A stretch of 64,000 bases of DNA from Heliopora coerulea (taxonomy: Eukaryota; Cnidaria; Anthozoa; Scleralcyonacea; Helioporidae): assembly GCA_030142905.1 (NCBI GenBank), contig JASJOG010000183.1:248001-312000 (forward strand). The letters are read 5' to 3'. How positions within the stretch are numbered: position 1 is the stretch's first letter; every line of letters begins with the position of its first letter. The position numbers and the translations under genes are program-made. A model generated the notes under the pieces. It saw nothing but the letters and a program-made list of their open reading frames with translations, did no database searches and was not told the DNA's origin. Shown in pieces: positions 14,601-61,150 of the stretch.

Positions 14601-15651
14601 CTGGAGGCTGACATGGCTCCATTTTAATCAGTTTTTCTTTATCTTTCACACTAAGCTTCATGCCAACAAGTGAAGCAGGATCAACAGTCTTATTCTCTTC
14701 ATCTATTTTAAGAGCGACTTTAATCTTGCCTCCAACCGTATCAAGCGCTGTTTCCTTCTGAGCTTTTTCGGCAAATTGACGTTCTGTATCCAAATCAGTT
14801 AACAAACTCTTTTTCTCGCCCCAAGCGTTGTCTTCAAGAACTTGAACATCCATGGCTTCATTATGTTCTGAGGAATGCCCCACTTTGTTGTCATTATTTC
14901 CGTAGACGTGACTTGTAGCTGAACATCTGAGATCCTCCTCAGTGTCTTGAGATTTCGCCATTTTTTCTTTCAGGTTGTCTTTATCAGCGTGATATGGGCT
15001 GCCTGTAGATGAACTTTCTCCTGTATCTTGGAGTGCTTTGTCTTCCACTTTCCCGACGTTTTTTGCAGCATCCTGGCAACGTTGATTGTCGCTCGCATCC
15101 TTTGAAAGGCAATTATTCAAATAGTTTTTCATGAAAGACCCAAGCCTTTCGTTTTCTTCTTTTCGGAACTTTCTTGCCTTCTTGTTTTCTGCACCCGATT
15201 TCTTTCGTTAACTTTTGTTGTTTTCAAACATTTTATGTTGTGTGTTGAATAAGTGATTTATTAGCAATAAAGGGAAAACATTCATTTAATATTGGGAAAA
15301 CATTCATTTAACAGCTATACAGACCACTCAAACGAGGAAAGGGACTGGAAACGTCAAACGTAGCAAATAGCTTGCCACGCGGGATAATGGATGTACTTGG
15401 ATAATAATGCTCTTTTAGCATAATTATCTTCGCTGTTATTTCTGGTTTGCCGTTTCCGCGTTTAGTGCTAGTTTGTAAAACTGTTTACTATGATCTTAGA
15501 ATTTGGTAATTTTGGGCTTTTTAATAATTTGATTGTTTCCATGAGGCCACCTTGACCATTTTTGCCGCCCCATTCACTGTTTGGCGCCCTGCTTTGAACC
15601 ATCACTGGATGGGCCAGGGCCCCCCTGGCCCCCCCTGCCACCACGCCACTG
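11696..15651 (-). mobile_element. hAT element, near full length (3.96 kb)
   Basis: Ends are exact 15-bp inverted repeats, CAGTGGCGTGGTGGC at 11696 and its reverse complement ending at 15651, with G/C-rich subterminal stretches on both sides (GGTGGGGCC, GCCGCCCCCC; GGGCCAGGG). One transposase gene reads on the minus strand. The flanking 8-mers GAGCTACC and GGGCTATC match at 6 of 8 positions. The left flank is a SINE and the right flank another hAT fragment, so the two ends may come from different insertions. Confidence 0.8.
12228..15213 (-). pseudogene. hAT transposase (ZMYM/KIAA1586-like), one frameshift
   Basis: The main frame (15132 down to about 13060) continues in another frame to 12228, giving ~980 residues. 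Coding-like sequence extends upstream of the ATG at 15132 to ~15213 (FRKEENERLGSF), as in relatives. Motifs in order: TTF-type finger (NWLFCLPCLLFSDE), a DUF4371-like start (GIAFRGHRES), WCLIVDTTPD with the first catalytic-type Asp, TYDGASNMSGCYNG, FVHCYAHTLNLVLSD, VRWNSREF, an acidic insert, and the dimerisation signature SSSTAERSFSGLKRIKSR. The switch near 13020-13079 is a single indel; otherwise the gene looks complete and recently active. Confidence 0.85.
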
Positions 15652-19149: not shown

Positions 19150-19410
19150 TTTTATACACTTTACTAATGCACCTAAGCGGAAGCCACTGTATGTTAATAA
19201 TATTATACTATTGTAAGGTCGCACATATGTCAAACTTGCACCTTAGCTCATCATCTGAATCTTGGTAGCTCAATGGTTAGAGCGTCTCACTGGTCATTAG
19301 AATGTCGTGGGTTCGATCCCCGTCTGAGGTTCATAAATTGTTTTTCTGAAGATAGAGCTTGACGAACGTTCATCGGTTATTTCAAGAAATCTCCAAGCTC
19401 CCACATTTCT
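19150..19410 (+). repeat. SINE family A, copy 5 (most complete)
   Basis: Leader (GGTCGCACATATGTC), box A (TAGCTCAATGGTTAGAGC), box B (GGTTCGATCCCCGTCT) and tail (AGCTTGACGAACGTTCATC, then TCTCCAAGCTCCCAC) are all present in order, so this copy defines the family. Confidence 0.8.
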
Positions 19411-20022
19411 TAAATATATATCTCAATACTGTTCCCACTTCACGCAACAGCTCAATCGGAATTCTTTCCAATCCTCGGCTTCGCCTCGAAGTAGAACGAA
19501 TTCCTCGTACTTGAAAACCCTGTCAAGTTCTCATTGTCGGCCTTTAAATATTACTTAAAATAGAGGTAAATAAATTATACTATATACTTCATCAACACTG
19601 GGCTAACTTTAGCGGGTGGTTTTATGTTTTCTTTCAAGTAACTTTAATCACGATTTAGTCAGTTTTCTTTGTTCTTTCGAACGGGTTTTATCCTGCGAAG
19701 AAACCGGCTATCTAAACAAAAGTGCGTTCGAAAAGCTGGGAGGGACTGTATATTCGATACCTGAAATGGCTGGTATTGTAAATACAATTCCTGAAATCAG
19801 TTAATTCAAGAAGAAAGACAAACTGAAAACATGTTTTTTTACTTCTCAAAGCAAAAACGATTCTCATTTCGCTTAACATTTCTCGAAGGAAACCTCCTTT
19901 AGTTGTGTTTTAAGTCGGATAAGTACCTCGGACTTCGGCTTTAAACCAGATGGCTTAAATCTTCCGTTCTTGGTATTTATTTTATACTTAAATGCGAATG
20001 ATCCCCAACAGTATAAAGAGAT

Positions 20023-20320: not shown

Positions 20321-20929
20321 GAGATTATGGCATTCAAAATAATTATGTCGTCAATGCGCTGAGAAGGATAATTGTGTGGCTGGCACGTGCCAGAAGAGGA
20401 AAAGGCTAGTGGACTGAGATTTTTTTTAACTGTTTGGCTTTATCTAAAAACTGGGTACTCCAAGCGAGACCTCCAAACATAACGTACGTGGACGTGGGAA
20501 AGAATTCACGATTGAACGTAACTTATTAATATCAAGGTCAACTATTACGGAGATGGAAGAAAGATGGAAAAATTTTGTGGAAGTCAGGACAACCACCAGC
20601 CTACCAAAGAGTGTCGATACATGGTCAAGGAACTTTGGTTGTAATAAACACAACCCTGTCAGACAATGGGACTTACAAACATGTAATTGGAGACCTCGAG
20701 GCTATCAAAACCATTGTGCTGAAAGTTATTATTCTAGGGGAGTAGAATGTGCAGGTAATCCTTATAACTTTGTTCCGGCTCTTTGTACCGAATTGTTTTC
20801 AACAGGGTTCCAAGAATTTAAAGTGACGTGTTAATGAACGAGAGATGTCAGTTTTCTTCCAGTTTAATTGTTTTTAGTGTGTTTTTTTAAGCCTCGTTTA
20901 CACGTGGGACTTTTCTTCCCGCGGTTGTC

Positions 20930-21372
20930 ATCTTGGCGTATGTGTGAAATTGAAGAGAGCGTCGAGGACAAACTGCAGCCAATCAAAAGCGGATGTCTTG
21001 GTACGTCGACTGTGATGAGTTCATTACATACATCACGATGACAATCAGAACGTGCGATTTTGCACCTGGCTATTGACATCTAGGAGTATGTGTTTAACTG
21101 ACGAGAGTGTCGAGGACAAACTGCAGCCAATCAAAAGCGGACGTCTTGCTTCATAGACTGTCGTGAGTTTATTACATGCACCAGGATGATAATCGCAACG
21201 TGAGATTTTGTGCCTTCCGATTGACATCTTGGAGTATGTGTTTAACTGACGAGAGTGACGAGGACAAACTACAGCGAACCATAAGCGGATATCTTGCTGC
21301 ATGGACTGTCATGAGTTTATCACACACACCAGGAGAACAATCGCAAAGTGTAAAATTGCACCTTTAGATATA
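20930..21372. repeat. tandem repeat, period 148 bp, three copies
   Basis: The landmark CGAGGACAAACTGCAGCCAA recurs near 20962, 21110 and 21258. Each unit carries CAGCCAATCAAAAGCGG (degenerate in the third), a GTGATGAGTTCATTACA-like segment and a GCACCTGGCTATTGACATC-like segment. Confidence 0.85.
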
Positions 21373-21599: not shown

Positions 21600-21775
21600 T
21601 TGTCAATGCAGAGATATATATTTTCGAAATGTGAGAGCTTGGAGATATCTTTAATGACAGATTAACGTTCGTCAAGCTCTATCCTCAGAAAACGATTTCT
21701 GAGCCTCAGACAGGGATGGAAGCCTTAACCTTCTGATGACCGGTGAGACGCTGCAATGATTGAGCTACCGAGACT
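21600..21775 (-). repeat. SINE family A, copy 6
   Basis: Tail, degraded box B and box A run on the minus strand. It faces copy 7 across a (TA)n tract. Confidence 0.7.

Positions 21776-21777
<2 letters not shown>

Positions 21778-21807
<30 letters not shown>
21778..21807. repeat. (TA)n microsatellite
   Basis: About 14 TA dinucleotides lie between two inverted SINE copies. Confidence 0.9.
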
Positions 21808-21809
<2 letters not shown>

Positions 21810-21827
21810 TCATAACATTAACATACA

Positions 21828-22005
21828 GTGGCTGCCGCTTAGGTCGCCCATATATCAAACTTGCACCTTAGCTCGCCATCTAAGTCTTGGTAGCTCAATG
21901 GTTAGAGCATCTCAGCGGTCATCAGAAGATCGCGGGTTCGATCCCCATCTGGGGCTCAGAAATTGTTTTCTGAGGATACAGCTTGACGAACGTTCATTTA
22001 TCATT
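21828..22005 (+). repeat. SINE family A, copy 7
   Basis: Leader, box A, box B (GGTTCGATCCCCATCT) and tail run on the plus strand. It ends about 170 bp before the virus-like block and pairs with copy 6 as an inverted repeat. Confidence 0.75.
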
Positions 22006-22192
22006 CATGATTGTCGATGTAGAGAATTTCGTAAGGGATTTGACATTAACTTATTAATTGTAACCTGAGATAGGAATGGGCGCGGCGAGAGTTGTAGTTA
22101 AGCTGACTTGAAAAGGTATCGAAATAATACATTGTTGCGTTGTAACGGTAAAAAACTCTCTTTATCAGGTGGTAAAATGGAAAGTGATATCA

Positions 22193-23031
22193 ACATGTCA
22201 TCATGGAGAATAAAAAAATATTCCAGCACCAATTAATGATTACGACCCAATTTCTAAAGCTGTTCTGGAACAAACATACTTAGTAGATTGTAAAAAACTA
22301 GTCGATTATAGAAAAAGTTTAAGTGAAACATTGATGGGGGAATACTACACAAAATTGTAACGAGTATTTATAGTTTAGATAGAGGGTCAAATAATAGTGA
22401 ATTAGTATTTGATACTTTAACCAGGAAAGTGTCTAAAACTATTGATCAGGGTCTAAAAGAAAATGATGCAACTCAAAACACAACCAATTTACAACCCACA
22501 TTATGTACAAAAAGTGAAAAAGTCGGAAATAGATATTTCTTAAAATTTGATGGGACACAAAGATTGATAAGTGATATTAATTTACATGTGGTTGGTGGGG
22601 CAAAAGATATAGTGAATATTTTCATAGTATGTAGGATAAAAGCATTTGATGCTAATATTTATTGGATACGTAATGGTTTGTTTGGTCACGGTAAATTTGT
22701 TTCTTTTAACCCATCTGGCGATTTGGTTGTTTCAGGGACAACAAATAAACACACTGTTATTGGCAGTAATCCTGTTAGAAGAATACAACCATCAGCTCCA
22801 TATAAAAATAAAGCAAATGCTGGAGTAAAAAATAAATGGGTTTGTTTATCTATACATTGGGACAATTACACATCATCAACAGTTGGAGCTAGCAAGGTAT
22901 ATTGTAATGGACAAAAGCTAACAGATTTTCAAAGCAGAAGTTCACTTGGTTCAACTAAAATGATCTTCGATGATATCAATCCAAATGGTATCGCTCCGTT
23001 AAAGGGTGATATTTCTTTTTTCTCTGTATAA
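22193..23031 (+). pseudogene. fibre- or lectin-like protein, C-terminal part
   Basis: A segment from about 22210 to 22356 shifts frame into the open frame 22357-23031 (~220 residues). The C-terminal 160 residues alternate beta-strand-like stretches (FLKFDGTQRLI, KWVCLSIHWDN, KVYCNGQKL, GDISFFSV), which suggests a concanavalin/LamG-type sandwich. Such domains occur at the tips of viral fibres, so an attachment role is a guess from fold style and position. The N-terminus is missing or unrecognisable. Confidence 0.45.
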
Positions 23032-23045
23032 AGGAAGATTAATAA

Positions 23046-23201
23046 ATGAGGAAAGCATTCTACTTCATCATCATGTACTCTGTAATTGGTTTAGTATTGA
23101 TACGGTTGGTTTCAATTTTTAATATATGTTATAATAAATGCCAAGAAGGAAGAGTATTGTTTACAATCACATCAGCAAAAATTTGTCTGAGGATGAAGTA
23201 A
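23046..23201 (+). CDS. small membrane protein, 51 aa
   Basis: MRKAFYFIIMYSVIGLVLIR starts 15 bp after the fibre-like gene stops. It has one hydrophobic helix (residues ~4-24), a Cys/Lys-containing tail and no known motif. It overlaps the start of the next gene in another frame, as in compact viral genomes. Confidence 0.4.
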   Translation: MRKAFYFIIMYSVIGLVLIRLVSIFNICYNKCQEGRVLFTITSAKICLRMK

Positions 23202-23656
23202 CCAAACTGAAACAATGGTATCTATACTACCATAAGCTTTACACTTGCTACAAACGGAAGTACAAGAAACTGAACAAAACAAAACTTTCTCTAAATATGG
23301 TAAGTTTAGGGTTAACAGTATCCAGAACTATAGCTGGTGGTATCACTTTGAATCCTATTATTTTGCGATGTATTAATCGTCCAGGTATTTTAATCCAAGG
23401 ATATTTATCAAAAAGTAATATCAATACCAAGACTGTTATGTGTAGATTCGCTCACACATCATATCAAAAAATTCTAACATAGTTAAAGACATATTTGTGT
23501 AGTATGCCATATGATGAATCGATATTACTGAGTGAACTAAAAATAATCGATAATATTGTTACTGATTTATGCCCACCTATTAATGGGATGTCTAAAAATA
23601 TGATAAAATATATGGTAATATATAATGAATCCGAAATTAAAGAATCCGTTTATTAA
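23138..23656 (+). pseudogene. conserved-type membrane protein, ~171 aa, one stop
   Basis: MPRRKSIVYNHISKNLSEDE begins a basic N-terminus rich in Tyr/Lys (YYHKLYTCYKRKYKKL), followed by a hydrophobic, glycine-containing segment (residues ~50-90). A TAG at 23480-23482 interrupts it, after which the same frame runs to 23656 (MPYDESILLSELKIID). The ATG follows TTAATATATGTTATAATAA. I remember similar unnamed proteins from cnidarian genome annotations; function unknown. Confidence 0.6.
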
Positions 23657-23780
23657 GGTCAGAGATTTTGTACAATGTTGTAAAAAAGCAACTATAGAGA
23701 TTGACAGTATGTTAGAGGATATTAATAGAATACATGTAGAGAATCAACCAAGTGACAAAAAGATGGTGGTTGACTTGTAG
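23625..23780 (+). CDS. small protein, 51 aa
   Basis: MNPKLKNPFIKVRDFVQCCK starts inside the end of the preceding gene in another frame, after ATATATGGTAATATATA. It looks helical and amphipathic with an acidic centre (IDSMLEDINR). No recognised domain. Confidence 0.4.
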   Translation: MNPKLKNPFIKVRDFVQCCKKATIEIDSMLEDINRIHVENQPSDKKMVVDL

Positions 23781-23869
23781 GTGATCTTACAATTGAGTAG
23801 TAGACAACCGTTGAGGTGTCGCAAAGTTAATTGTTTAGATGACTAGTAAATAAAATACATGATATATAG

Positions 23870-24345
23870 ATGAGTGAAGAAACACATAAAATAACAGCAA
23901 CAAAAAAGGAAAAAGATCCAAAGAGGGTTGAGGCTGGTAAGCGTTTGGCTGCTATTTTTAAAGCTGCAAAAGAGAAAAAACATGCGGAATAAAACAGAGT
24001 CAGAGAACTCCAATGGTGACTTTAATAAGATAGATGAACGATCTTCAAGCTCGATACTCAGAAAATGATTTCAGAAAAAGATCGTTCATCTATCTCAATA
24101 TATCCAAGCTCTCACTTCTTCTCAAAAAAACATCAGGTGAATTTAATATCAATTATGGTCTGGTATTCGGTTTTATAGGAACAGCTGTTGCTATTGCCTC
24201 TTTGTATTATAGAAGAGAGGAGTATAAAAGAGAGACCTTAAAACCAGTCGTTATTAATAGAGTGGAACAAGAAAAAGAGCCCAAACATGGAACTATTAAG
24301 CCAACGAAAAAACAGCCAGAAATTATATTAGACAGTTTGGAATAA
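23870..24345 (+). pseudogene. small basic membrane protein split by a SINE insertion
   Basis: The 5' part (23870-23992) encodes a Lys-rich segment with KDPKRVEAGKRLAAI. After a frameshift and a 108-bp insertion (24028-24135), coding resumes at about 24136 with FNINYGLVFGFIGTAVAIAS, a single membrane helix, then a charged tail to the stop at 24345. The duplicated target flanking the insertion explains the split. The start follows ATACATGATATATAG. Confidence 0.65.
24028..24135. mobile_element. SINE family A tail insertion with 13-bp target duplication
   Basis: The 108-bp insert consists of two family-A tail pieces in opposite orientation (GATGAACGATCTTCAAGCTC, then GATCGTTCATCTATCTC). It is flanked by GGTGACTTTAATA (24015-24027) and GGTGAATTTAATA (24136-24148), a target duplication with one mismatch. 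The inverted 5' portion is what twin-primed retrotransposition produces. Confidence 0.8.
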
Positions 24346-24397
24346 CAGACATTTGAAATACACGAAAGGACTATCCATAAAATATAAATTAATGTAT

Positions 24398-24742
24398 ATG
24401 GAACATTTAAAAACTGACGAATGAGTTTCTCGGGATAACAAAAAATGTTTATACCCATAATGATGATTTATGGTTCAGAGAGTTTGAGATAACAACGATT
24501 TTGAAGTATAATAACAGAAGAGAAGTTTTCAAATACAATATTCCTGACGATAAAAAAAAATGAGAGTTAAGAAGAATATAGTGTTCTCTAATGGTAAGAC
24601 AATAGAAACACTGGTAGCGATGGTCGATGAACTAGGATTATATAGATTGATATTTCTTTCTGACTATGAACATAAAAAACAGTTCAAAAAATGGTTATTC
24701 ATGGCTGTTTTACCATCTTTAAGGGAACAGATTAAAAAATAG
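24398..24742 (+). pseudogene. BRO-N domain protein, degenerate copy
   Basis: From ATG 24398, after a stop, comes NDDLWFREFEITTILKY, the strand-helix core of a BRO-N (baculovirus repeated ORF N-terminal) DNA-binding domain. Then a 1-bp shift leads to ELGLYRLIFLSDYEHKKQFK and WLFMAVLPSLREQI, the usual ending of the domain. A paralogue lies directly downstream. BRO-N proteins are typical of large DNA viruses and phages and of virus-derived insertions. Confidence 0.7.
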
Positions 24743-24839
24743 TCCAACAGAATTCATGTTACCAGGACGATAACGTGGCCAAAAACCATTAAATTGAAAT
24801 AAAAATTATATAAAGTAATATCATATAACAGTGTATAAT

Positions 24840-25658
24840 ATGTCATTAACAGTCAAGAAATTTGATAACAAAGATTTGAATATATCCCTTGATGCTTATA
24901 TCGATAATAAGCAGAATATCTGGTTCAAGGGTAAAGAGATCGCCACATTATTGGGGTATGAGTGCCCTAGAAATGCAATTCGCGATCACGTTCATAAAGA
25001 TTATAAGACGGAATATAAGGACTTAAAAGGGGCACTGATTCACTGCCCTCCATTAAATGTCCAATCAAACACCATTTTCATCAAGAAACCTGGACTTTAC
25101 GCACTTATTTTTAGATCCATGTTAGAATCTGCAAAAGTGTTCCAGAATTGGGTTTTCTCTGAAGTGCTGCCATCAATAAGAAAGTATGGACACTATAGGA
25201 TGTTCAACCTTAACACACTCACTTTCAAAATGGAAGATGAATATGATCTACATGCTAAACTAGTTCAATTCATTAGACGATTTTACCCAGAAATACTAAT
25301 GAATGCTGGACTTGGAGAGTATCAAGACACCAAAGATAAACGCATCAAATCGTTCAAAAAGGGATATATGAAAGGATTTAATTCAAATTCAAAATCTTCA
25401 TAAGCATTATAATGGTGTTTGCATAGAGTTCAAAACCCCTCAGTGTAACGATGTTTTATCAGGCCAACTGAAAGAATTAATGGAGCGTTATAAGATAATG
25501 GCTATAAATGAATAGTTTCTAATGACTGTGACCTTATCACAAAGGAATTGAATGACTATATGCACGATATTCGCATCAGATGTAAATACTCTAGACGGAA
25601 ATTCTTATCCAGGAAAACACTAAGTCGGCATGTTAAATATTTCCACAGAATCAGATAA
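24840..25658 (+). pseudogene. BRO-N protein with C-terminal nuclease-like and finger-like regions
   Basis: ATG 24840 is preceded by TATAAAGTAATATCATATAA. Residues 1-115 form an intact BRO-N domain (WFKGKEIATLLGY, KKPGLYALIFRSMLESAKVF, WVFSEVLPSIRKYG). The frame ends at 25403. Beyond it, two other frames continue the protein to 25658: a segment with YNGVCIEFKTPQ resembles the Glu-x-Lys core of VRR-NUC/PD-(D/E)XK nucleases, and the last ~25 residues have a finger-like C...H...H pattern in which one expected Cys reads Ser. This order is seen in some invertebrate viruses, from memory. At least two frameshifts. Confidence 0.7.
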
Positions 25659-25726
25659 ATTAACACCCATTTTTAATGTTTTATTATATACCCATTGTTT
25701 GTGTATATAATAATTTGCAACCATAA

Positions 25727-25753
25727 AATAAAATATGTATTATTATATACACA
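25727..25753 (+). promoter_or_regulatory. TATATA-type promoter-like motif
   Basis: TATTATTATATACACA ends directly before the ATG at 25754, and an inverted partner GTGTATATAATAAT lies at 25701-25715. Similar motifs precede many genes of the block. Confidence 0.5.
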
Positions 25754-25990
25754 ATGCGTACAGTCAATAAGAAAGAACTGTTGAACGAACTCTATGATGC
25801 TACTCTGGTGACCGCAGGTGTTATAGGTTTATTAATGGCATCCAAGAAGTTAGCGGGTGAAAAGTTTACAGACGCAACGACGTTAAAGGACACAGCAAAG
25901 TTAGCAGTCGGTGTCGCAGCTAGTACAATGCTGGTTAAGTGGGCTCAAGATAAGACGTATTTACCAGTTGATCCCTTTAATAAGCAGTAA
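25754..25990 (+). CDS. small membrane protein, 78 aa, intact
   Basis: A short charged start (RTVNKKELLNELYDA) is followed by LVTAGVIGLLMASKKLAG and, after a turn, LAVGVAASTMLVKWAQDKTY, giving two small Ala/Gly-rich helices compatible with a membrane hairpin. It is one of the few uninterrupted genes here. The size and place suggest a virion membrane or minor structural protein, but no known family is assigned. Confidence 0.6.
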   Translation: MRTVNKKELLNELYDATLVTAGVIGLLMASKKLAGEKFTDATTLKDTAKLAVGVAASTMLVKWAQDKTYLPVDPFNKQ

Positions 25991-26016
25991 ATATATGCTA
26001 TTATATACAGATAATA

Positions 26017-26443
26017 ATGGCTAGTATTATAGGAGGGATGTTACAAACAGCATTTGTTGGTCTTGCATTTGCTGGAAGTGGTTATCTCTTTAGGATGCTT
26101 GATAAAAATGGTTATGAAGCTGAAATGAAAAGACATAATATAGCACTAGAGGAATTAGCTGCATCCAAAGAATAGTTCTATGAAAATGAAGTCAAGCAAC
26201 GTGATAGAATCCAACAGTTAAGACAAGAATTATGAGATGCTAATGAAGACCTTGAGAGGACAAACGAAACACTCGACAATCTCAGACGGGTCCAAACAAT
26301 ACAATATAATGGAAAAACATTCAACAGAGAACCGCAATTAAGTAATTTTTACCAACCAAGCATAGAAACGAAGGAAAAATCAGCATATCACTATTGGTTC
26401 TATTGGTATTGGAACAGGATCTATATTGAGCAGATATGTTTGA
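26017..26443 (+). pseudogene. coiled-coil membrane protein, two stops and a frameshift
   Basis: MASIIGGMLQTAFVGLAFAG forms an N-terminal membrane helix, followed by a long charged coiled coil (DKNGYEAEMKRHN, VKQRDRIQQLRQE). Stops lie at 26173 (TAG) and 26233 (TGA). Near the end another frame gives a Gly/Ile-rich hydrophobic tail (ITIGSIGIGTGSILSRYV), so the original was probably anchored at both ends. The ATG follows CTATTATATACAGATAATA. Confidence 0.65.
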
Positions 26444-26472
26444 AATGTGATGTATATCAGTATACAAAAATA

Positions 26473-26835
26473 ATGGATGTATTAGAAGCTCTGTGTCATG
26501 GGTTTAAATTCGAAGAAATCGTTAAAAATAATATATGATTTACCGGCTCTTTATAATAGTGAAGAAAAGAAAGAAAATGATGAAAACTATTGCAGAGATT
26601 GTGAAATAGAGCTAAAGATAATAGATGGACTTTTCATTGTGATCAATGTGGTGCAGTTGGTGATAGTGTTATGGTCAGTGAATGGATCGAAAATATACAG
26701 TCACATAGAAATATATCTGTATATATCAGAAGTCATAACATAGGAAAGAGATTGCAGAAATGCGTTTATCACAACCACCTTCGTCTTGTTTTTGAAGATT
26801 TCCTAAAAGTTGTCGATAGAATGACTAAATATTGA
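26473..26835 (+). pseudogene. zinc-ribbon protein, candidate late transcription factor
   Basis: After several frame changes the region reads YCRDCEIELKIIDG followed by FHCDQCGAVGD, a CxxC-CxxC zinc ribbon of the type in TFIIB and in poxvirus VLTF3-like factors. A helical stretch up to 26835 (HNHLRLVFEDFLKVVDRMTK) follows. The ribbon is clear; the viral transcription-factor role is inference from fold and context. At least two frameshifts. Confidence 0.5.
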
Positions 26836-27054
26836 TTGATAAAGAAAAACATTTCCAGATATGACTACTATATAATAAGACTTTCCAGTCGCATCAATGC
26901 GATATCAAGAAAGAAACCAAAAAACCTGGTGCATGGTAAAACCAGAAAAATATTCGATGATAGACTTTTTGGAAGAGTTTATCCGCTTTTATGGTGGGCC
27001 AAAAACTGCAGATGTAAGTATTATTTGAAATGGAAAAAAATACCTAAAAAATAA
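26836..27054 (+). pseudogene. basic C-terminal extension or separate small gene
   Basis: The frame continues directly after the preceding stop with IKKNISRYDYYIIRLSSRIN and ends Lys-rich. It may be the end of the zinc-ribbon gene after a nonsense mutation or a separate gene. No domain recognised. Confidence 0.35.
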
Positions 27055-27059
27055 TTTTC

Positions 27060-27081
27060 TGTATATATAGTATATAGAAAA
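27060..27081 (+). promoter_or_regulatory. TATATA-type promoter-like motif
   Basis: TGTATATATAGTATATAGAA precedes the ATG at 27082. An almost identical stretch, TGTGTATATAGTATATAAAA, precedes the ATG at 27348. Confidence 0.55.
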
Positions 27082-27268
27082 ATGTCAAACAAAAAGTTAC
27101 AGGACTTCACATCCAAATGCACATAAATTAGATGAGTTATATAACAATTTTCTAAATAGTCGTGTAGGATGTAATCGTTGTGGTAGTATGTCCTTTTTAT
27201 TTAATCGAGAGGGTTGCTGTTTATCTGAACCATGTAAGACTAAAGAGGAAGCCTATAAAGCATATTGA
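27082..27268 (+). pseudogene. small Cys-rich protein (~60 aa), frameshifted
   Basis: MSNKKLQDF shifts frame into PNAHKLDELYNNFLNSRVG, then CNRCG and CCLSEPC, four or five cysteines spaced like a small zinc-binding knuckle. One indel near 27110. Confidence 0.45.
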
Positions 27269-27325
27269 AGCTCTTGATGTTAATTACTTATACAAATACT
27301 CTTAATTGGTTTAAAAAATGATTTT

Positions 27326-27347
27326 CTGTGTATATAGTATATAAAAA
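27326..27347 (+). promoter_or_regulatory. TATATA-type promoter-like motif
   Basis: TGTGTATATAGTATATAAAA ends at the ATG and repeats the motif before 27082. Confidence 0.55.
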
Positions 27348-27620
27348 ATGGTTTACGACAAGTTACATGACTCTTCATATCCAGAAGCAGATGAACGTGA
27401 TGAACTTTATGAAAAAGTGGAACAAGGAATGAGTGCTTTTGATAGTTTTTATGTACTCCATGAGTATATTGGACTTTGTAAAGACTACAAATACGATATA
27501 TATGATAATTTGGATGACGATTGTGAAGAGTATATAAAAGCTTTCATTGGTTAGGAAAATAATATTGATGAAGACAGTTCAGATTCAAATTACACAGCAA
27601 CATCAGATTCTTCAAATTAA
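27348..27620 (+). pseudogene. acidic small protein (~90 aa), one stop
   Basis: MVYDKLHDSSYPEADERDEL begins an acidic, Tyr-rich protein. TAG at 27552 interrupts it, and the same frame continues with DEDSSDSNYTATSDSSN to 27620. No known domain. Confidence 0.5.
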
Positions 27621-27663
27621 TCACTTAAATATTATTTTAGATAACATTATTATATATAGTGTT

Positions 27664-27897
27664 ATGACTGAAACAAATAATAAACCACAACGTGGTCGTG
27701 GAAGACCCAGGAAATATTTCATAGATGAAGAGAGAAAACAAGAATACAAACGATATGTAAAGGAATGTATGGAAAGAAACCCATTTTATTGTGTGTTCTG
27801 TGACCATACTTATCATATGGCAAGTAAAAGCAAACACTTAAAAAGCAAAATACATCTAAAATTTTTGCAAAAAATGTGGGTGAATTTTAATTCTTAA
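27664..27897 (+). CDS. AT-hook and C2H2-finger protein, 77 aa
   Basis: The start follows ATTATTATATATAGTGTT. RGRGRPRKY at residues ~10-18 is an AT-hook (minor-groove binding), and residues ~42-62 give FYCVFCDHTYHMASKSKHLKS, a C2H2-like finger with a third His downstream. A DNA-binding regulatory or packaging protein is likely. The frame is uninterrupted. Confidence 0.65.
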   Translation: MTETNNKPQRGRGRPRKYFIDEERKQEYKRYVKECMERNPFYCVFCDHTYHMASKSKHLKSKIHLKFLQKMWVNFNS

Positions 27898-27934
27898 ATA
27901 ATTAATGCGTTAAATTGGCTTAAAGAATCTTGTT

Positions 27935-27957
27935 TATACCATATGTTATATGGTATA
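27935..27957 (+). promoter_or_regulatory. palindromic promoter-like element
   Basis: TATACCATAT-GTT-ATATGGTATA is a perfect palindrome with 10-bp arms, 13 bp before the ATG at 27971. It may be the replicase promoter or a protein-binding site. Confidence 0.5.
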
Positions 27958-27970
27958 AAGAACATTTTTC

Positions 27971-28744
27971 ATGACTAAAGATTTCATCAATCCGATAACT
28001 GGGAGGTTTGTATCTCAGACATACTACAATAGGGTTATGAAAAAAATCGCCCGTGAAAAAGCCATAGAAGAAGAGAAGTTAGAATTGGCTCGAAACAGAT
28101 TAGAAAGACAGTTGAACAATAGACCCAAACAATGCCACCACCTGCTCAGCAATTTGAGGTCGTAAATGACGAAAAAATAGAAGATAAAAAAATAGCAAAA
28201 AGGACTGGTTTGAAAAGAAAAGTCATAAAACAAATTGTCAAAAACCGTCTAATCGCAAAAAGGACCGGTCTGAAAAGGAAAACCATCCGTATACCAAAAA
28301 AAAACTATACTAACCCTCTGAATGCCGAAAAAGTCATACTCAAAAAAATATTTGAATGCCTTAGTGGAGAGAGAAAGAAGGGACAAAGAGTGGTAAAAGG
28401 CCCTGGATAAGGCCAATGAACTCAATTCCCTCATGGAATACGAACCTGTCCGTTCTGATAAGTACCCCATGATTGGCCTATCTCTATACGAAGCAAGATG
28501 CTATGAACTGGACTTTATAAACAGAAGAACTGTTATGTTTGAAAGGAACTCTTCGTTTGTCAACCTATTTAGAAGGAGGATGAGAAGGAACGGAAACGGA
28601 TGGGAAACTGTTTCTGTCACCATAGACGTTGTTATTAAAGACGATAGAGCACCTTTAGAGAAGCAGGAGAAAACCAAACTTTTGGACCATTTGAAGAGAG
28701 TCAACCAAGAGGCTTATAAAGACGTGATATTTACCAGTTTTTGA
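27971..28744 (+). pseudogene. replication gene, N-terminal basic region
   Basis: MTKDFINPITGRFVSQTYYN starts the region. A frame change near 28135 leads to a segment with a duplicated 20-residue unit containing KRTGLKRK (28190-28310), then, past a stop near 28395, a region with SDKYPMIGLSLYEARCYELD to 28744. The repeated basic unit suggests DNA binding. I place it in the same gene as the polymerase because order and strand are continuous and spacing is small, but a separate gene is possible. Confidence 0.5.
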
Positions 28745-28789
28745 TGTATGAGCGCTCTTGTTGACAAATGTAACAACTAAAAAAAATAA

Positions 28790-30443
28790 TTCAAAATAAA
28801 GGCTCCTGTGTGCAGGACTATATTTATGAAGCTGGTAAAGGGGGAAATGGATTCAAAAGATACACTAAAATATCCCTTACTGAAGAAATCATTAAATATG
28901 TGTTTGATAGACATGCCAAATAACCCTCCACTAGAGAATTATTAGGCTGGAGGGATAACTGCCACACTAATGTGTCTATATATGCTTTGTACCCCTTCTA
29001 TAACAAATTTATGTCCTCTCCAGCACCTAGAAACAATGGAAATACAGTTCGTCTGTGTTTTATATGCAAAGATGGTCATTGTTTTCCAATATTGAATGAA
29101 AACCTAATAACTAAGATTACAAAAGGATCTCCATTATTAAACCACTTGGATCTCATACAGTGGAATTCTAAACAAAATGAAGATAAAATAGAAATCTGTA
29201 AAATTAAGAAAGACTAGTATAATATTATTAATCACTCCAAAAAGTGCTTTATTTGCAAATTCTGATAAAACAAAAAATTATGAAAACTATGTGATTGTGC
29301 TTCCTGATGGACACAATGGTAAAGATATGATGGTAGAGACCATGCACAGGGCACACACTCATATAGAGTACTTCCACTACGATGGAAGGAGCCAAATCGA
29401 TGGGTTAATGACTCCTGATTTGAAAAATATGGTTTCCGGTAAATAATGACTATGAACTGAAGAAAAATCTTTGCGACCAGCTTTTTGAAAAGTATCCAGT
29501 AGATGCTTTCAAATTTAACAACCAATATCTGACTTCAATAGCAGTAAATCTGTTTAAACAACTATATGGGCACTTAAAAAGTTCCAATTATAACGAACAC
29601 GTGATATCAATCATTGATGACTACTATCCAAAGGCACTGCAGCATACATTCCATAAAGAATTCAATAAGGATGACGAAGAAGTGGAACTAACTGCTTTAG
29701 ATATTGCAAAAGACTACCCATCAGTGCTGCCAACTAACGAACGTGATATCCCATTATATAATATACACAATAAGATAAGAAAATTTGATGGAAACTAAAG
29801 ACAAGCGAATACTATATTAATGAAACACTAATAAAGAAGCATAAAACACTAAATAATGACCCAATAATAATAGAAGTTGGATTTTACGAAAGAAATCTGA
29901 TTGACTATCTACTCAAAGAAATTTATAACACTCCAAGATATAAAACTGCAACTAGTAACTGATATGTCAATCAAATATGATGTATTCAAAGAGTAAATCA
30001 AATATATTTTTGACAATTTTGACGAATCCACTGCTAAAAAGTTGGCAAACCGACTCATTGGATACTTAGGAACGAAATATGATAAAAGTAGCGAAGGATT
30101 TACTTCCACTAGTTATGACACTGCTTGCGCTGTTTGGAAGGAGGCTCTTGAAAATAATGAGAAAGTGAGTATCCATAAGGAAGATGATTTCTTTCTAATC
30201 CGCAAAATAGATATCAAAAGGAGGATGGTTGAAAACTGTTCTATTAATAGACATGTTATATCAGGATCGGTCATGAAGCTTTTGGAAGTGATTGAAGAAA
30301 CTTGTGATCAATATACTATAATTCATGGATACAATACTGATGCTGTCTACTGTGAAAATTCATGCAAAGATCACTCAATAAAAGGTAAACAACAAAAATT
30401 TACTTCTGATATGATCGGTAAAGTGTATCAAAAGGTAGGGTAG
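28790..30443 (+). pseudogene. B-family DNA polymerase region
   Basis: Three conserved regions occur in the right order: motif A-like LDIAKDYPSVL (~29697-29730, catalytic-type Asp plus Tyr-Pro-Ser), motif B-like KKLANRLIGYLG (~30033-30070) and motif C-like GYNTDAVY (30327-30350, where the first Asp of the usual pair reads Asn). The upstream part (28972-29215) has a Cys-containing segment LCFICKDGHC. The region is broken by at least four stops or shifts. Spacing suggests the protein-primed, Polinton-like group. Not functional as read. Confidence 0.65.
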
Positions 30444-31692
30444 ACCCCTCCTATGATTGAAAAATCTTACAGAAAGAATATCGACTTAGATTACTATATA
30501 ATAGAACCTGGAAAAAGAAACTAAATAACAGGAGGTGCTGGATGTGGCAAAACCACAAAACTGATAAATCATGCCAAAGAAAGTAAAAATCTTATTACAT
30601 TCAGCTTCACCCACAAGGCTGTGGATAACATTAGAAGTAGAGTTGACAATAGTTTGAAAAATAAAGTGGATACATTTGATACTTACTTCAATGAATATAT
30701 ATCAGATGCAGAAAACCTCAAACTATTGACCAATAAGGATGTATTTATAGACGAATTCACTATGGTTCCAAATAAATGGATCACTTTGATTTATCATAGC
30801 TATGTGGCAAATACTCTGAAGGTTAACCTATATGGAGATGCAAACCAATGTGACCCTGTTAGATACAGTAGTTGATTAAAGTATGACTATACATGCAAAG
30901 AGTCCTGCTATATTGGAGATGTGTCCTGATACTATTGAACTTAAATATATTGAAGAGAGTACTAGATATGACAAGAAAACTTTTGATATGCTGACTAACT
31001 TCCTACAGACCGGTCGCTTGAACCAAAAATTGACCAACTATACAGACACATTTGTCAATATATGCTACTTCAATAGCACTAGAAAGGAGATTAATGAAAG
31101 GTGTTCTGATGCATTTTGCGAAAGTAAGAACCACCTAAAAATTAACGTCTTCTACAATGGATCTAAAGAAGAATATAAAGTCTGCCCGGGCACACCTGTG
31201 ATATGTATTGATAACATGAAGGACCATGGTATGTTCAACTCTCAGCAGTTCACCATTAAAGATATAAATATAAATGGAGTAAGTATAAAGGAAAATGACC
31301 AAAAGTTCTCTTTGGACGAATTTAGAAAGAAGTTCAATCTAGCATTCTGTATGACAGTATACAAATATCAGGGACCAGAGATAGACCAACACTATAACAT
31401 TTTTGAACAAGCCATGAATGAGGCCATTAGCAAGAAACAATTATATACAGTATTAAGCAGGACAACAAAATTCGAATACATACATGCAGAAAACGTGGAT
31501 GCAAAATATACGTACAATTCTAAGAACAAATACGAAGTAGTTTCAATAGGGCACACAGAATATCAAAAAGATAAGATTTATAAAATAGAATTTGATGACG
31601 GAACCATTTACATTGGATCTACGATAGAGACCAAAGAAACCAGACTAAAAGAGCATTTGTCTGACACCAAATCTAAACTATACAAAAATTAA
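30444..31692 (+). pseudogene. SF1 helicase fused to a GIY-YIG domain
   Basis: Walker A GGAGCGKTTKL at 30531 follows a stop in the same frame. Walker B VFIDEFTM lies at ~30740-30765 and motif III LYGDANQCDP at ~30831. After a frame change at 30875, motif V/VI-like TVYKYQG and LYTVLSRTTKFEY lie at ~31350-31480. These define a Pif1/RecD-like superfamily 1 helicase. The same frame runs on into IYKIEFDDGTIYIGST and TRLKEHL (~31576-31660), a GIY-YIG nuclease start with its Arg helix. The polymerase frame reaches 30443, so all three activities may have been one polypeptide. Confidence 0.8.
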
Positions 31693-32126
31693 GACAAAAA
31701 TCCTAAAATATCACTAGTCATAAATTGCCCTTGCAAAAATAAACACAAATTAGAAAAGATAGAAAAGAAACACGTAAATGATTACGCCAAAAAACATGGT
31801 GATAAAGTACTTAATAAAGAGGCAATGAAGAAATCAAAGAAAAACCAGAAATCAAATACAGTTTCAAAATAGAGAAAGAGGAAGATCTGTTAAACAGAAT
31901 AGAAAATATGCTCGCAATCGAAAATGATGAAAAGAACAAACAATTGAAAATCCACTTTTGCAATGGTGGGGAAAATGTCAAGGTAACCAAGTGTTACGGA
32001 AAAATATTACTCGCTGAAGCAATGGATTACATGAAACTTCAACAAAAATCATTGAAACTGCAACTTATTCAACTGAGATATATTTATCTATTAAAATGGG
32101 TATTACCCGAGCCGCTGAACTTCTGA
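31693..32126 (+). pseudogene. C-terminal tail of the helicase/GIY-YIG gene
   Basis: Beyond the stop at 31690 the same frame continues with KISLVINCPCKNKHKLEKIE, which supplies the Glu-containing helix expected late in GIY-YIG domains, then a Lys/Asn-rich tail with several frame changes. The last frame ends at 32126, just before the inverted repeat at 32154. Confidence 0.5.
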
Positions 32127-32153
32127 CCCCTGGGTGTTTAAAACAACAGATAA

Positions 32154-32242
32154 CATACCAAATATCCCTAGCAACTAGTCTTGCTGAAAATAGTTTTTGT
32201 GTTTACAATGGTCTATTCAAATCGTTAGGGATATTTGGTATG
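32154..32242. repeat. inverted repeat, 17-bp perfect arms, 55-bp spacer
   Basis: CATACCAAATATCCCTA at 32154-32170 is the exact reverse complement of TAGGGATATTTGGTATG at 32226-32242. It sits directly after the last coding remnant of the virus-like block. It may mark its end or be a small independent foldback element. Confidence 0.85.
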
Positions 32243-34197: not shown

Positions 34198-36179
34198 CTA
34201 GCAACCCTCTAGTTGTAGTGTATCTTTACGAGGCAAAGGAATATCCTTATAATGCTTTAACGCTTCAAAATCTTCAATGCCCTCTCTTGGAAACACCGCT
34301 GGACCAAATGCTGTTAGAAAAGCCACTGTATTAATCTCTGCCCGAGCTGAAACACCTTTAATGAAGCTGTTGACCAATGGATCGTGTATGGTTATCTCAA
34401 GTTCTTCCTCGTTGTCCTCTAATGATCCTAAATGTTCCTTTAATAAATCACATCTCAAGCCATGAGCGAACTTTCCCATCTTGTATTCCAAACCATTCAT
34501 TTTGCCATCCATCGTGTCCAAATCCTTTATAATAACTGCTACTTCGGAATCGCGTTCTCCCAACATACTGCGATCATTTATATTTGCAGATCCAATGATA
34601 GCCACATGATCGTCTACAATCATTGTCTTACTATGGACATAAACAATCTCAGTCACAAAATATCTCTCTATTAAATCATACGTACGTAAGCTGTACACAG
34701 AGAAATATTTCCTTGCAATTTCTTTCGGGATGTTTCTTTTCTCCAGCTTGCTGAATAAGGAGTCCTCTCCATGGCAGATAGTGGCTTGGTTCCAGAAGGT
34801 CACTGCCCGCAAAGCATCACCGTTCCAATCACTTGAGTCCCAATCCCCAGGGAATTCTGGTTTTAGGGGGGTGATGACCATGACGTGAAAATTTTCACCA
34901 GCCTCGTGGGCGTGGACAATTCTCTCGACCAATGCAGACTGGATCCTATTTTGAACTTTTCGCCAGAATCCTTCTTGCGACGAAATGAAGAACTGATTTT
35001 CTATATAAATGAAGTGCTTGGCATTTTTTATCGCATCTACGTAAGCGTTATAAATCGAAGCTTCATGTTCCTGACCAGCTGACCAGTTGTCTACGGATCG
35101 CAGGAGCTGAATGTCGACATTATACGCACCGAAATCTAACACGTGTCCCGCTTTCGATTTGCTGTTCGGAAAAATTTTGCGGAGGGGGTTACTGAACTGA
35201 AAATACTGGCGAAGCGAGCCCCAATATTCTTGCAACCAAGGTTTAAGAGCATTGCATCTGTCAGTAAAATGTTTTACAGCATCCTGTACTGCATCCCCAG
35301 TGAATGCACAGCTTACATCATGCCAAGGCATGCGAGGAATTGCATTTCTTTCTACACCCTCGTAATCTTTGAATGGCTTGTCCCAGTCTGTTTGACTTTC
35401 CTTGTTATAAAACGTGTTTTTGTAATCTTTGCCAACCCAACGAGCATATTTACCAGCAGGGTTTGATTAGGTTGCTCAGTAGGCTTGCTTTCATCTACAG
35501 CAGGATGAGTTGGATAATTATCCATCAACTCATGGCTGCGAGTATCCCAGCGGCCATAGCAAAGATCAATACCACCAACAAATGCAATACTGCGGTCAAC
35601 AATGACCATCATTTCATGATGACTTCACCGGAATAAAGTTGTGGGGTTTTGTATTCCACTAAGGTGATCAGGATGCCGTTGAATCACTATATTTTTATGC
35701 TTACCAAGCAGTTTCAAGGCGTGAACACTTCCAAGATCTGGCAATGGCTTCGTTTCCCAGTATAGTAGGATGTGCACTAGAGCACCTTCATCAGCTTTTC
35801 GCAATAGCATCTTGTCCAGTCGCCATTTCAAGCTATCCACTCCTAAATCAGATCTTTTCATGAAAACTTCTGGGTTCATTTGAAAGTCTGTAATCATAAT
35901 TTCTTTCTTGGCTGACTCAATCGCATCAGCCACAGCAGACATATAATCTTTGCCGTCAATAAACCACGCAGCTCGTCCGTTTCTGCGAACTGGTGCAAAT
36001 GAGCCATAGCGATAGCGTTGAGAGTCTGATCTCCTAGTGTAGGCTATTATCATAGCCAGCGTGGCGAGACAAACTGCCCCTAATATGTATCTAAAGAGCA
36101 TCACAGGTCTAAGCTTTAAGACAATTCTTCGAAGAATTAAGAGAAAATTATGTATGCTTGATACATATTCAAATTTCAA
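34198..36179 (-). pseudogene. PLD: phospholipase D (PLD1/2-like), intronless, broken
   Basis: Phospholipase D hydrolyses phosphatidylcholine to phosphatidate at membranes. From 36179 down: an N-terminal membrane helix (LFRYILGAVCLATLAMIIAY); DGKDYMSAVADAIESAKKEI; the first HKD region [10 protein letters not shown], where the Lys of HxKx4D reads Met; [28 protein letters not shown]; and the second HKD motif VHSKTMIVDD with GSANINDRSM intact. Breaks: TGA at 35625 where relatives have Trp, and a frameshift at ~35440-35465. No introns and no PX/PH domains are seen, and AATAAA follows the stop closely. It is either a retrocopy or a decayed intronless paralogue. Confidence 0.85.
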
Positions 36180-60800: not shown

Positions 60801-61150
60801 CTTCTTGATTTCTCTCTGGAAATTCACAAGTTACTCGTTCCAGAACATCAGTAGTTTCATTGTTAGTATTCATATCTTCACTAACATCCATATCTTGTTG
60901 CCGGTTTCTTCTTTGAGCTTTCAGTACTTGAGCTGCCTTATCCCTCAGATTTTGCGCTGTTAGGCCTAGTGAAGCGTACCCTTTTTCTTCCCACAGCAAC
61001 CGCATTATCTCCATGTAGCCTTTCCTTCGATCATTCTGGCTGTTCTGCTCTACTAATGCTCTTTCTCGACAAGATAGGAGATCTGATACCATCTCCTCGG
61101 TTCATTTAATTCTTTTCAATGTTACATTCCGTCGTTTAGGTGGCATCTTG
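57855..61150 (-). pseudogene. LINE-type retrotransposon: SANT-like domain, reverse transcriptase, C-terminal nuclease
   Basis: The probable start is MPPKRRNVTLKRIK near 61145, followed by an in-frame TGA where a SANT Trp is expected, then TEEMVSDLL...GYMEIMRLLWEEKGY and QNLRDKAAQVLKAQ. Reverse transcriptase motifs: GVRPIAIGEVPRRI, LLVDANNAFNTIN, EGITQGDPLAM, VWFADDSTGGG. After two frameshifts (~59030 and ~58550) comes a C...H...C segment and RLDIRAKGFW, QDAFFDVRVFHP, a restriction-like endonuclease as in R2/NeSL-type LINEs. The frame runs past a TGA at 58080 to about 57860. RT catalytic residues are intact, but the copy is not translatable. Confidence 0.8.

What the first reader, a model, noticed from the sequence alone, without database searches (positions are those of the whole stretch)
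22170..32150. Compact one-strand virus-like block that matches no standard layout
The block has ~15 intron-free genes, all on the plus strand, with overlapping starts, and is AT-rich against its flanks. It combines PolB motifs, an SF1 helicase, GIY-YIG, two BRO-N genes, a zinc ribbon, an AT-hook/C2H2 protein and several small membrane proteins. I see no integrase, capsid, packaging ATPase or protease. It looks like a poorly described lineage of endogenised small DNA virus or virus-like transposon. Its genes are broken, so intact relatives would be needed.
Basis: partly seen in the sequence, partly recalled or inferred. Interest (0 to 1): 0.92.

Follow-up and report, generated by a model that had tools for sequence, protein, structure and literature searches.

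The report
Broken polinton-like virus in animal genome
This stretch looks like the decayed remains of a small DNA virus of the polinton-like kind, with a known type of fused polymerase-helicase, sitting in what looks like an animal genome; the type is known, but this branch is distinctive and its capsid remains to be found.

Summary
The claim that it fits no standard layout is wrong. The PolB motifs, SF1 helicase and GIY-YIG are one broken gene, in the order vOTU protease, PolB palm, SF1 helicase, GIY-YIG. That is the Tlr1-like (pPolB-S1H) replicase of polinton-like viruses (PLVs). A profile of 111 related replicases finds six colinear pieces here and nothing else in the window below E 0.19. 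The first gene is fibre-like with a LamG/ConA-type lectin head. BRO-N, zinc-finger-like and small genes lie between. Relatives of fibre and replicase occur on many contigs, a few over 1 Mb. The replicase family forms a deep group of its own, one unsure row aside. 'No capsid, no integrase' holds for the 36 pieces scanned but says little: homology begins inside the fibre gene, so the left part is probably missing. I saw the surroundings of no close relative, so capsid, intact copies and gene co-occurrence stay open. PLVs in stony corals are in print (paper not held). Verdict: new member of a known kind, of interest for its apparent animal host and deep branch.

The parts
22150..23119 (+). Fibre-like protein: N-terminal part (cut and broken) and C-terminal LamG/ConA-type lectin head, last part in another frame
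   Evidence: tblastn of relative P0004 matches 22150-23028 at 59% from its residue 24 on; profile of 46 relatives hits 22327-23028 (3.2e-101), 23003-23119 (2.3e-11) and, weakly, 22214-22357 (0.0044); 86 relatives besides itself; model of P0004 pLDDT 71-97 per block of ten from residue 151; fold matches
23138..23780 (+). Small gene, about 200 aa, apparently split over frames; function unknown (SLATT-like pore protein is a guess without test support)
   Evidence: ORFs 23138-23482, 23483-23656, 23619-23780; hydropathy maximum 1.14, below the cut; no Pfam match; one weak PHROG 'virion structural protein', E 0.059
23870..24345 (+). Small gene with one candidate membrane helix, apparently split over frames
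   Evidence: ORFs 23870-23992 and 24034-24345; hydropathy maximum 1.74; weak PHROG 'holin', E 0.089
24411..24742 (+). BRO-N gene 1, broken in two
   Evidence: Pfam Bro-N E 9.3e-3 (24411-24563, profile 4-41) and 2.8e-7 (24554-24742, profile 54-96)
24819..25658 (+). BRO-N gene 2 (domain open) with a broken C-terminal part that looks like a degraded zinc finger
   Evidence: Pfam Bro-N E 2.1e-26; C-terminal reading by eye, no Pfam match
25754..25990 (+). Small ORF of 78 aa, weakly hydrophobic (maximum 1.39)
26017..26480 (+). Small gene with N-terminal hydrophobic stretch (maximum 1.64), broken after about 52 aa
   Evidence: ORFs 25984-26175 and 26236-26538
26486..26835 (+). Zinc-ribbon-like gene split over two frames (CxxC in each)
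   Evidence: read by eye; no Pfam support
27071..27305 (+). Second zinc-ribbon-like fragment
   Evidence: read by eye; no Pfam support
27348..27554 (+). Small acidic ORF, 68 aa
   Evidence: weak PHROG matches only, best E 0.0076
27664..27897 (+). AT-hook plus C2H2-like protein
   Evidence: AT_hook E 0.013, zf-DBF E 0.018, both below cut-off; start codon position
28774..32075 (+). Tlr1-like replicase (pPolB-S1H-GIY-YIG) in eight homologous pieces over two frames; the N-terminal part may begin further left (from about 27970)
   Evidence: six pieces by the profile of 111 replicases, 31693-31869 by blastp (best 4e-22), 31818-32075 by tblastn with P0091; frames
28774..29214 (+). vOTU protease domain, with aligned Cys (CVQDY) and His (GHCFPI)
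   Evidence: profile positions 221-259 and 286-355, E 5.5e-4 and 1.9e-4
29424..30440 (+). PolB palm: motif A (ALDIAKDYPS), motif B (KKLANRLIGYLG), motif C (YNTDAVY)
   Evidence: profile positions 420-548 and 624-757, E 5.2e-6 and 1.8e-6
30525..31483 (+). SF1 helicase
   Evidence: profile positions 813-923 and 948-1149, E 7.6e-9 and 2.4e-35; Pfam AAA_19 7.6e-10
31573..32075 (+). GIY-YIG domain and C-terminal tail
   Evidence: alignment with relatives carrying PF01541; tail 64% identical to P0091
21884..21956 (+). tRNA-derived repeat near the left limit (host side)
   Evidence: Rfam tRNA 35.8 bits; similar repeat at 19216-19344

Best explanation
This is a decayed, probably left-truncated copy of a polinton-like-virus-type element of a lineage with a Tlr1-like replicase. 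In active relatives the large replicase is thought to work as follows: an N-terminal part primes synthesis as a terminal protein, the vOTU domain cuts it free, the PolB palm copies a linear double-stranded genome, and the SF1 helicase unwinds the template; the exonuclease is lost and the C-terminal GIY-YIG is a fused homing-type nuclease. BRO-N and zinc-finger-like proteins would bind DNA or regulate. The fibre-like lectin protein would bind glycans on the host cell from the surface of a particle, which implies a virion whose capsid genes lay in the missing left part. After integration this copy decayed. Shown here: domain order, motifs, lectin fold of a close relative, clade, decay. Taken from the cited families: priming, cleavage, unwinding, glycan binding. 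Inferred only: the lost capsid, and that fibre and replicase belong to one element (they lie in one block here; no second copy was seen).
For: Six colinear pieces hit by a profile of 111 replicases, E 2.4e-35 to 5.5e-4; next best of 1204 ORFs E 0.19. vOTU Cys/His, palm motifs A-C and Walker A align; the corresponding residues are among the invariant ones of 9 aligned distant replicases (positions assigned by me). Natural relatives P0109 and P0134 have motif C and Walker A in one ORF, and P0154 aligns at 78% across 30273-30893. PF01541 is precomputed in 14 of 67 relatives. The spacing from vOTU to palm fits a profile of replicases of a kind described as lacking the exonuclease. The one related viral contig with the whole architecture (L001/L002, 28% identity in the helicase) encodes such a replicase beside a 618-aa ORF that I read as the capsid protein and an adenain-like protease (Pfam E 1.7e-5). 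Lectin fold. Published domain order: PMC11071308 and PMC12721341 (passages).
Against: No capsid, ATPase or integrase in 36 scanned pieces and no terminal repeat between the sides. Fibre and replicase relatives share no contig by length (0 shared, 85 distinct lengths against 67 rows), though that search's length filter shuts out full-length replicases. The capsid reading of the L002 ORF has no Pfam or PDB support, and the fibre profile finds no fibre in the part of L002 held (best E 0.8). Each palm and vOTU match is weak by itself. That the 111 profile proteins lack an exonuclease rests on the literature, not on a test here.
Confidence: 0.87

Rival explanations
1. A capsid-less, transpoviron-like linear element: it keeps the Tlr1-like replicase but never had a capsid module, and spreads as a plasmid or inside another virus's particle.
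For: No capsid or packaging gene in about 10 kb. Transpovirons carry this replicase after loss of the structural module (PMC11071308 passages).
Against: A fibre-like lectin protein with virus-fibre fold matches makes most sense on a particle. The left end lies inside the fibre, so absence is expected either way.
Confidence: 0.08
2. A Polinton/Maverick or adintovirus remnant.
For: PolB palm and vOTU, animal-like host; BRO-N is reported from some polintons (PMC12721341 passage).
Against: The SF1 helicase lies in the same gene as the palm, the spacing leaves no place for an exonuclease unless it was deleted, and no integrase was seen.
Confidence: 0.02
3. A fragment of a large DNA virus (giant virus or baculovirus-like), with BRO-N and lectin genes.
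For: BRO-N is common in large DNA viruses (passage); Feldmannia, Pyramimonas and Aureococcus virus proteins are among the fold matches.
Against: The replicase is of the small-virus type; no large-virus hallmark gene was seen in the pieces scanned.
Confidence: 0.02

Closest known systems
Tlr1 element of Tetrahymena and its Tlr1-like helicase (pPolB-S1H-GIY-YIG)
   Same: Order vOTU, palm, SF1 helicase, C-terminal GIY-YIG; no exonuclease (passages)
   Different: Ciliate host; it carries integrase, ATPase and capsid genes (passage), not seen in this copy. No direct sequence comparison with Tlr1 was made.
Cryptomonas PLVs with SF1 helicase fused to GIY-YIG (PMC12220804, passages and section 13 part 1)
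   Same: Same fusion in 1000-1400 aa proteins in 16 PLVs; LamG lectin fibres are described in cryptophyte PLVs
   Different: Algal hosts; not compared by sequence here
Environmental PLV-like contig IMGVR_UViG_3300011339_000889 (L001/L002)
   Same: Replicase of the same architecture, 28% identical in the helicase
   Different: The contig ends before any GIY-YIG; carries a capsid-like ORF and a protease; no fibre of this family in the half of the contig held
OmPLV of Oxyrrhis marina (PMC12721341, abstract and passages)
   Same: Endogenised PLV with SF1 helicase, pPolB, BRO-N and GIY-YIG
   Different: Helicase is N-terminal to a pPolB with exonuclease; BRO-N fused to VRR-NUC
Transpovirons
   Same: pPolB-S1H replicase (PMC11071308 passages)
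   Different: Parasites of mimivirids, no structural module (passages); I know of no fibre in them (recalled)
Polintoviruses and PLVs of stony corals (Stephens 2024, doi 10.1093/ve/veae039; seen as reference entry and one citing sentence only)
   Same: Endogenised small DNA viruses of a cnidarian, perhaps including this very lineage
   Different: Could not be compared: paper not held

Membership tests
PLV with Tlr1-like (pPolB-S1H) replicase | vOTU domain with catalytic Cys and His before the palm | tested here: met
   Cys and His invariant in 9 distant rows
PLV with Tlr1-like (pPolB-S1H) replicase | PolB palm motifs A, B, C, with the first Asp of motif C replaced | tested here: met
   ALDIAKDYPS, KKLANRLIGYLG, YNTDAVY; changed first Asp as described in the passage
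PLV with Tlr1-like (pPolB-S1H) replicase | No exonuclease domain | tested here: inconclusive
   209 nt between vOTU and palm pieces and spacing as in the profile fit absence; a deletion in this broken copy is not excluded and no exonuclease search was run
PLV with Tlr1-like (pPolB-S1H) replicase | SF1 helicase fused C-terminal to the palm | tested here: met
   colinear pieces; P0109 and P0134 carry both in one ORF
PLV with Tlr1-like (pPolB-S1H) replicase | C-terminal GIY-YIG or HNH (variable) | tested here: met
   by alignment to relatives with PF01541; the window pieces alone give no such Pfam match
PLV | Double-jelly-roll major capsid protein, minor capsid protein, packaging ATPase | tested here: inconclusive
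   none in 36 pieces, but the copy is probably cut on the left
PLV | Terminal inverted repeats | tested here: inconclusive
   none between the flanks; ends probably lost
Polinton/Maverick/adintovirus | pPolB without a fused SF1 helicase | tested here: not met
Polinton/Maverick/adintovirus | Retroviral-type integrase | tested here: inconclusive
   none in the pieces scanned; truncated copy
OmPLV-type | SF1 helicase N-terminal to a full pPolB | tested here: not met
   order reversed
Transpoviron | pPolB-S1H replicase without capsid module, carried by a giant virus | not testable with these tools
   no complete close relative with context could be fetched

The most novel reading that the evidence does not exclude
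A family-level lineage of animal-infecting elements with a Tlr1-type replicase and a lectin fibre that either uses a capsid unrelated to the double-jelly-roll type or borrows another virus's particle, and that has seeded many animal genomes without being described.
Probability: 0.1. Interest if true: 0.85.

Novelty: new member of a known kind. Interest (0 to 1): 0.45.

Why it matters
In the passages I read, Tlr1-like replicases come from protist elements, environmental PLVs and transpovirons. A deep separate group of them, with relatives on long contigs and, here, beside an animal-type gene, would extend this replicase to animal hosts. It would let one ask whether animals host their own viruses of the PLV kind and which capsid they use. 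It also shows that three 'odd' domains are one recognisable gene.

Tried and rejected
Polinton/adintovirus: rejected on the helicase fusion. HelPol (PMC11071296, section 13 and passages read): a different polymerase with remote similarity to PolBc and Pol-Delta, not described there as a helicase fusion. Capsid hidden in small ORFs: no support in Pfam (36 pieces); PHROGs (10 pieces) gave, outside BRO-N and helicase, only weak matches, among them 'virion structural protein' E 0.059 and 'holin' E 0.089. Membrane protein at 26498-26743: probably out of frame. Terminal inverted repeats: only 12-base matches at E 0.58; the perfect 17-base pair at 32154-32242 lies outside the block, with no partner near the left end. 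Second copy of the block elsewhere in the window: none at E 1e-3 with plus-strand pieces of 40 aa or more. IMG/VR scans with the window's helicase piece, BRO-N, two small genes and the fibre alignment: none; alignment A5: none; A2: one PLV-like contig; A6: that contig again and four loci whose matching ORFs are 267-470 aa, two of them cut by an end. GTDB genomes: none in two scans. Phages: none. Contig-length fingerprint for fibre and replicase: no shared length, a weak test. PDB fold matches of the fibre model: 47 of the 50 rows listed (of 173 with E up to 0.001) are clostridial neurotoxin chains or their partner protein, the other three a pilin and an arabinanase module; TMq 0.34-0.46 and the LamG matches speak for a generic ConA-like sugar-binding fold, not a toxin; not pursued.
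Full report
WHAT WAS CLAIMED. A compact plus-strand block at 22170-32150 with PolB motifs, SF1 helicase, GIY-YIG, two BRO-N genes and small proteins, no capsid or integrase, fitting no standard layout.

IS IT THERE. Yes in outline. GC is 0.326 in the block against 0.392 (left) and 0.376 (right); 8 of 10 one-kb windows lie below all 54 windows outside. There are 11 plus-strand and 1 minus-strand stop-to-stop ORFs of at least 100 aa; 200 dinucleotide shuffles give at most 2 on plus, mean 0.175. Pfam supports one open BRO-N domain (E 2.1e-26), one split BRO-N and the helicase (AAA_19 E 7.6e-10). AT-hook and C2H2 stay below their cut-offs. No second copy of the block lies elsewhere in the window at E 1e-3.

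ONE GENE, NOT THREE. A search with an alignment of the helicase family and a related environmental replicase gave 121 proteins, 120 listed; most look like relatives of the environmental one. I built a profile from the 111 of these 120 that are longer than 900 aa and searched 1204 stop-to-stop ORFs of at least 30 aa of the window. Six ORFs have E below 0.001, all in the block, on plus, and in the order of the profile: 28774-28920 (profile 221-259, E 5.5e-4), 28924-29214 (286-355, 1.9e-4), 29424-29795 (420-548, 5.2e-6), 29997-30440 (624-757, 1.8e-6), 30525-30872 (813-923, 7.6e-9) and 30880-31689 (948-1149, 2.4e-35). The next ORF has E 0.19. The alignments place a Cys (CVQDY) and a His (GHCFPI) on the vOTU positions, and show palm motifs A, B and C and a Walker A motif. 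In nine aligned distant replicases the Cys, His, motif A Asp, motif B Lys and Gly, motif C Thr-Asp and Walker Lys are invariant (I assigned the positions). The vOTU, palm and helicase scheme is that of PMC11071308 (passages read). Relatives P0109 and P0134 carry palm motif C and Walker A in one natural reading frame, and P0154 aligns at 78% across window 30273-30893. The piece 31693-31869 matches relatives at up to 4e-22, and the tail is 64% identical to P0091 up to 32075. GIY-YIG (PF01541) is precomputed in 14 of 67 replicase relatives and found in 10 of 28 aligned rows, but in 0 of the 120 listed proteins. The window's own pieces give no GIY-YIG match; it rests on that alignment.

WHAT THIS MEANS. 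vOTU, palm, C-terminal SF1 helicase and GIY-YIG, without exonuclease, is the domain order of the Tlr1-like helicase of polinton-like viruses (PMC11071308 passages; PMC12721341 abstract and passages). The same fusion is reported in 16 Cryptomonas PLVs (PMC12220804, passage). So the layout is known. Absence of the exonuclease here is suggested by spacing only.

THE CLADE. A tree of 55 rows (dereplicated from 129 that held the region, of 133 given) puts the window family, 10 rows, with one long-branched, poorly filled environmental row (P0265) in one group with support 100/100 on a stem of 1.99. The window family alone needs one change in 28% of bootstrap trees, otherwise more; I blame that row, which I did not remove and retest.

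THE FIBRE. The first gene has 86 relatives besides itself at E 0.001 or better. Of 85 distinct contig lengths among those 87 rows (the window's own included) 38 are at least 50 kb and 10 at least 1 Mb; of the 67 replicase rows 14 and 2. The 11 longer relatives whose sequence I read are 320-403 aa. Pfam LamG_3 matches 2 of 46 (best 1.5e-6); PHROGs matches are few and weak, 'virion structural protein' in 5 of 46, 'tail fiber protein' families in single rows. The model of relative P0004 has mean pLDDT 72 and blocks of 71-97 from residue 151 on. Foldseek against viral models gives 467 matches with E up to 0.001; of the named ones among the first 50 many are LamG/ConA-like or tail-fibre proteins, the very first an uncharacterised one. 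Against PDB there are 173; 47 of the 50 listed are clostridial neurotoxin chains or their partner protein, which hold such a sugar-binding jelly-roll, TMq 0.34-0.46. I read the protein as an attachment lectin. LamG-bearing fibres are described in PLVs of cryptophytes (PMC12220804, section 13, part 1 of 2 read).

WHY 'NO CAPSID' SAYS LITTLE. Homology on the left starts at 22150 at residue 24 of P0004, about 190 bases from a tRNA-derived repeat at 21884-21956. On the right it ends at 32075, near the end of the replicase. No terminal repeats join the sides. The copy is thus probably cut, and capsid genes may have lain to the left; that is inference. The only viral contig with the whole replicase that I could fetch, L001/L002, has a 618-aa ORF that I take for the capsid protein (by position and look; no Pfam or PDB match), an adenain-like protease (E 1.7e-5) and the replicase. 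It shows no fibre of this family in the half of the contig held.

HOST. To the right lies a PLD1/2-like ORF (34201-35466, minus), best PDB match phospholipase D1 at 2.4e-79, PLD2 at 5.3e-69, two other phospholipases D at 3.4e-31 and 1.6e-21. The window also holds hAT, tnp2-type transposase and reverse-transcriptase ORFs. This fits an animal. A cnidarian was not shown.

WHAT FAILED. The window's genome could not be searched. Fibre and replicase hits share no contig length; the search only admits proteins of similar length to the query piece, so intact replicases were shut out. Viral and GTDB scans found no close relative.

PRINT. Nine word searches of the paper library and the passages read in six papers showed me no description of this replicase in animals. 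The library lacks Stephens 2024 on stony-coral polintoviruses, which PMC12220804 cites for endogenous PLVs in corals, and I did not look up Barth 2024 on entomopoxvirus-associated viruses (reference entry). PMC10120064 (passages) notes cnidarian capsid genes outside the main animal polinton cluster. I claim no priority.

CHANGES ON CHECKING. The fibre was extended to 23119; the exonuclease row was set to inconclusive; the PLD gene was cut to its supported ORF; best-explanation confidence went from 0.88 to 0.87 for the exonuclease point.

VERDICT. A decayed, probably left-truncated polinton-like virus with a Tlr1-like replicase and a lectin fibre, of a distinctive clade. New member of a known kind.

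Noticed in passing
window 32154-32242: Perfect 17-base inverted repeat pair with 55 bases between, just outside the right limit of the block.
   Followed up: partly
window 20902-21363: Three tandem copies with a 148-base spacing, 75-80% identical to the first, left of the block.
   Followed up: no
window 19171-19424 and 21611-22011: tRNA-like repeats (Rfam tRNA at 19259 and 21884) in direct and inverted copies 2.2-2.6 kb apart; look like tRNA-derived SINEs.
   Followed up: no
window 34201-35466 (-): Phospholipase D1/2-like ORF, useful for naming the host.
   Followed up: partly
window 9980-11572, 12231-15207, 44065-45573, 59041-61101: hAT-type (dimerisation domain, DUF4371), tnp2-type transposase and reverse transcriptase ORFs.
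   Followed up: no
Fibre relatives share contig lengths in two pairs (1,831,392 and 2,070,848), and two replicase fragments share 13,685: likely several copies, or one broken copy, per contig.
   Followed up: no
P0265 and P0263: Full-length environmental replicases nearest to the window's palm piece (26-30% identity); P0263 seems to carry a GIY-YIG-like tail (by eye). Their contigs (20 and 10 kb) would be worth reading.
   Followed up: no
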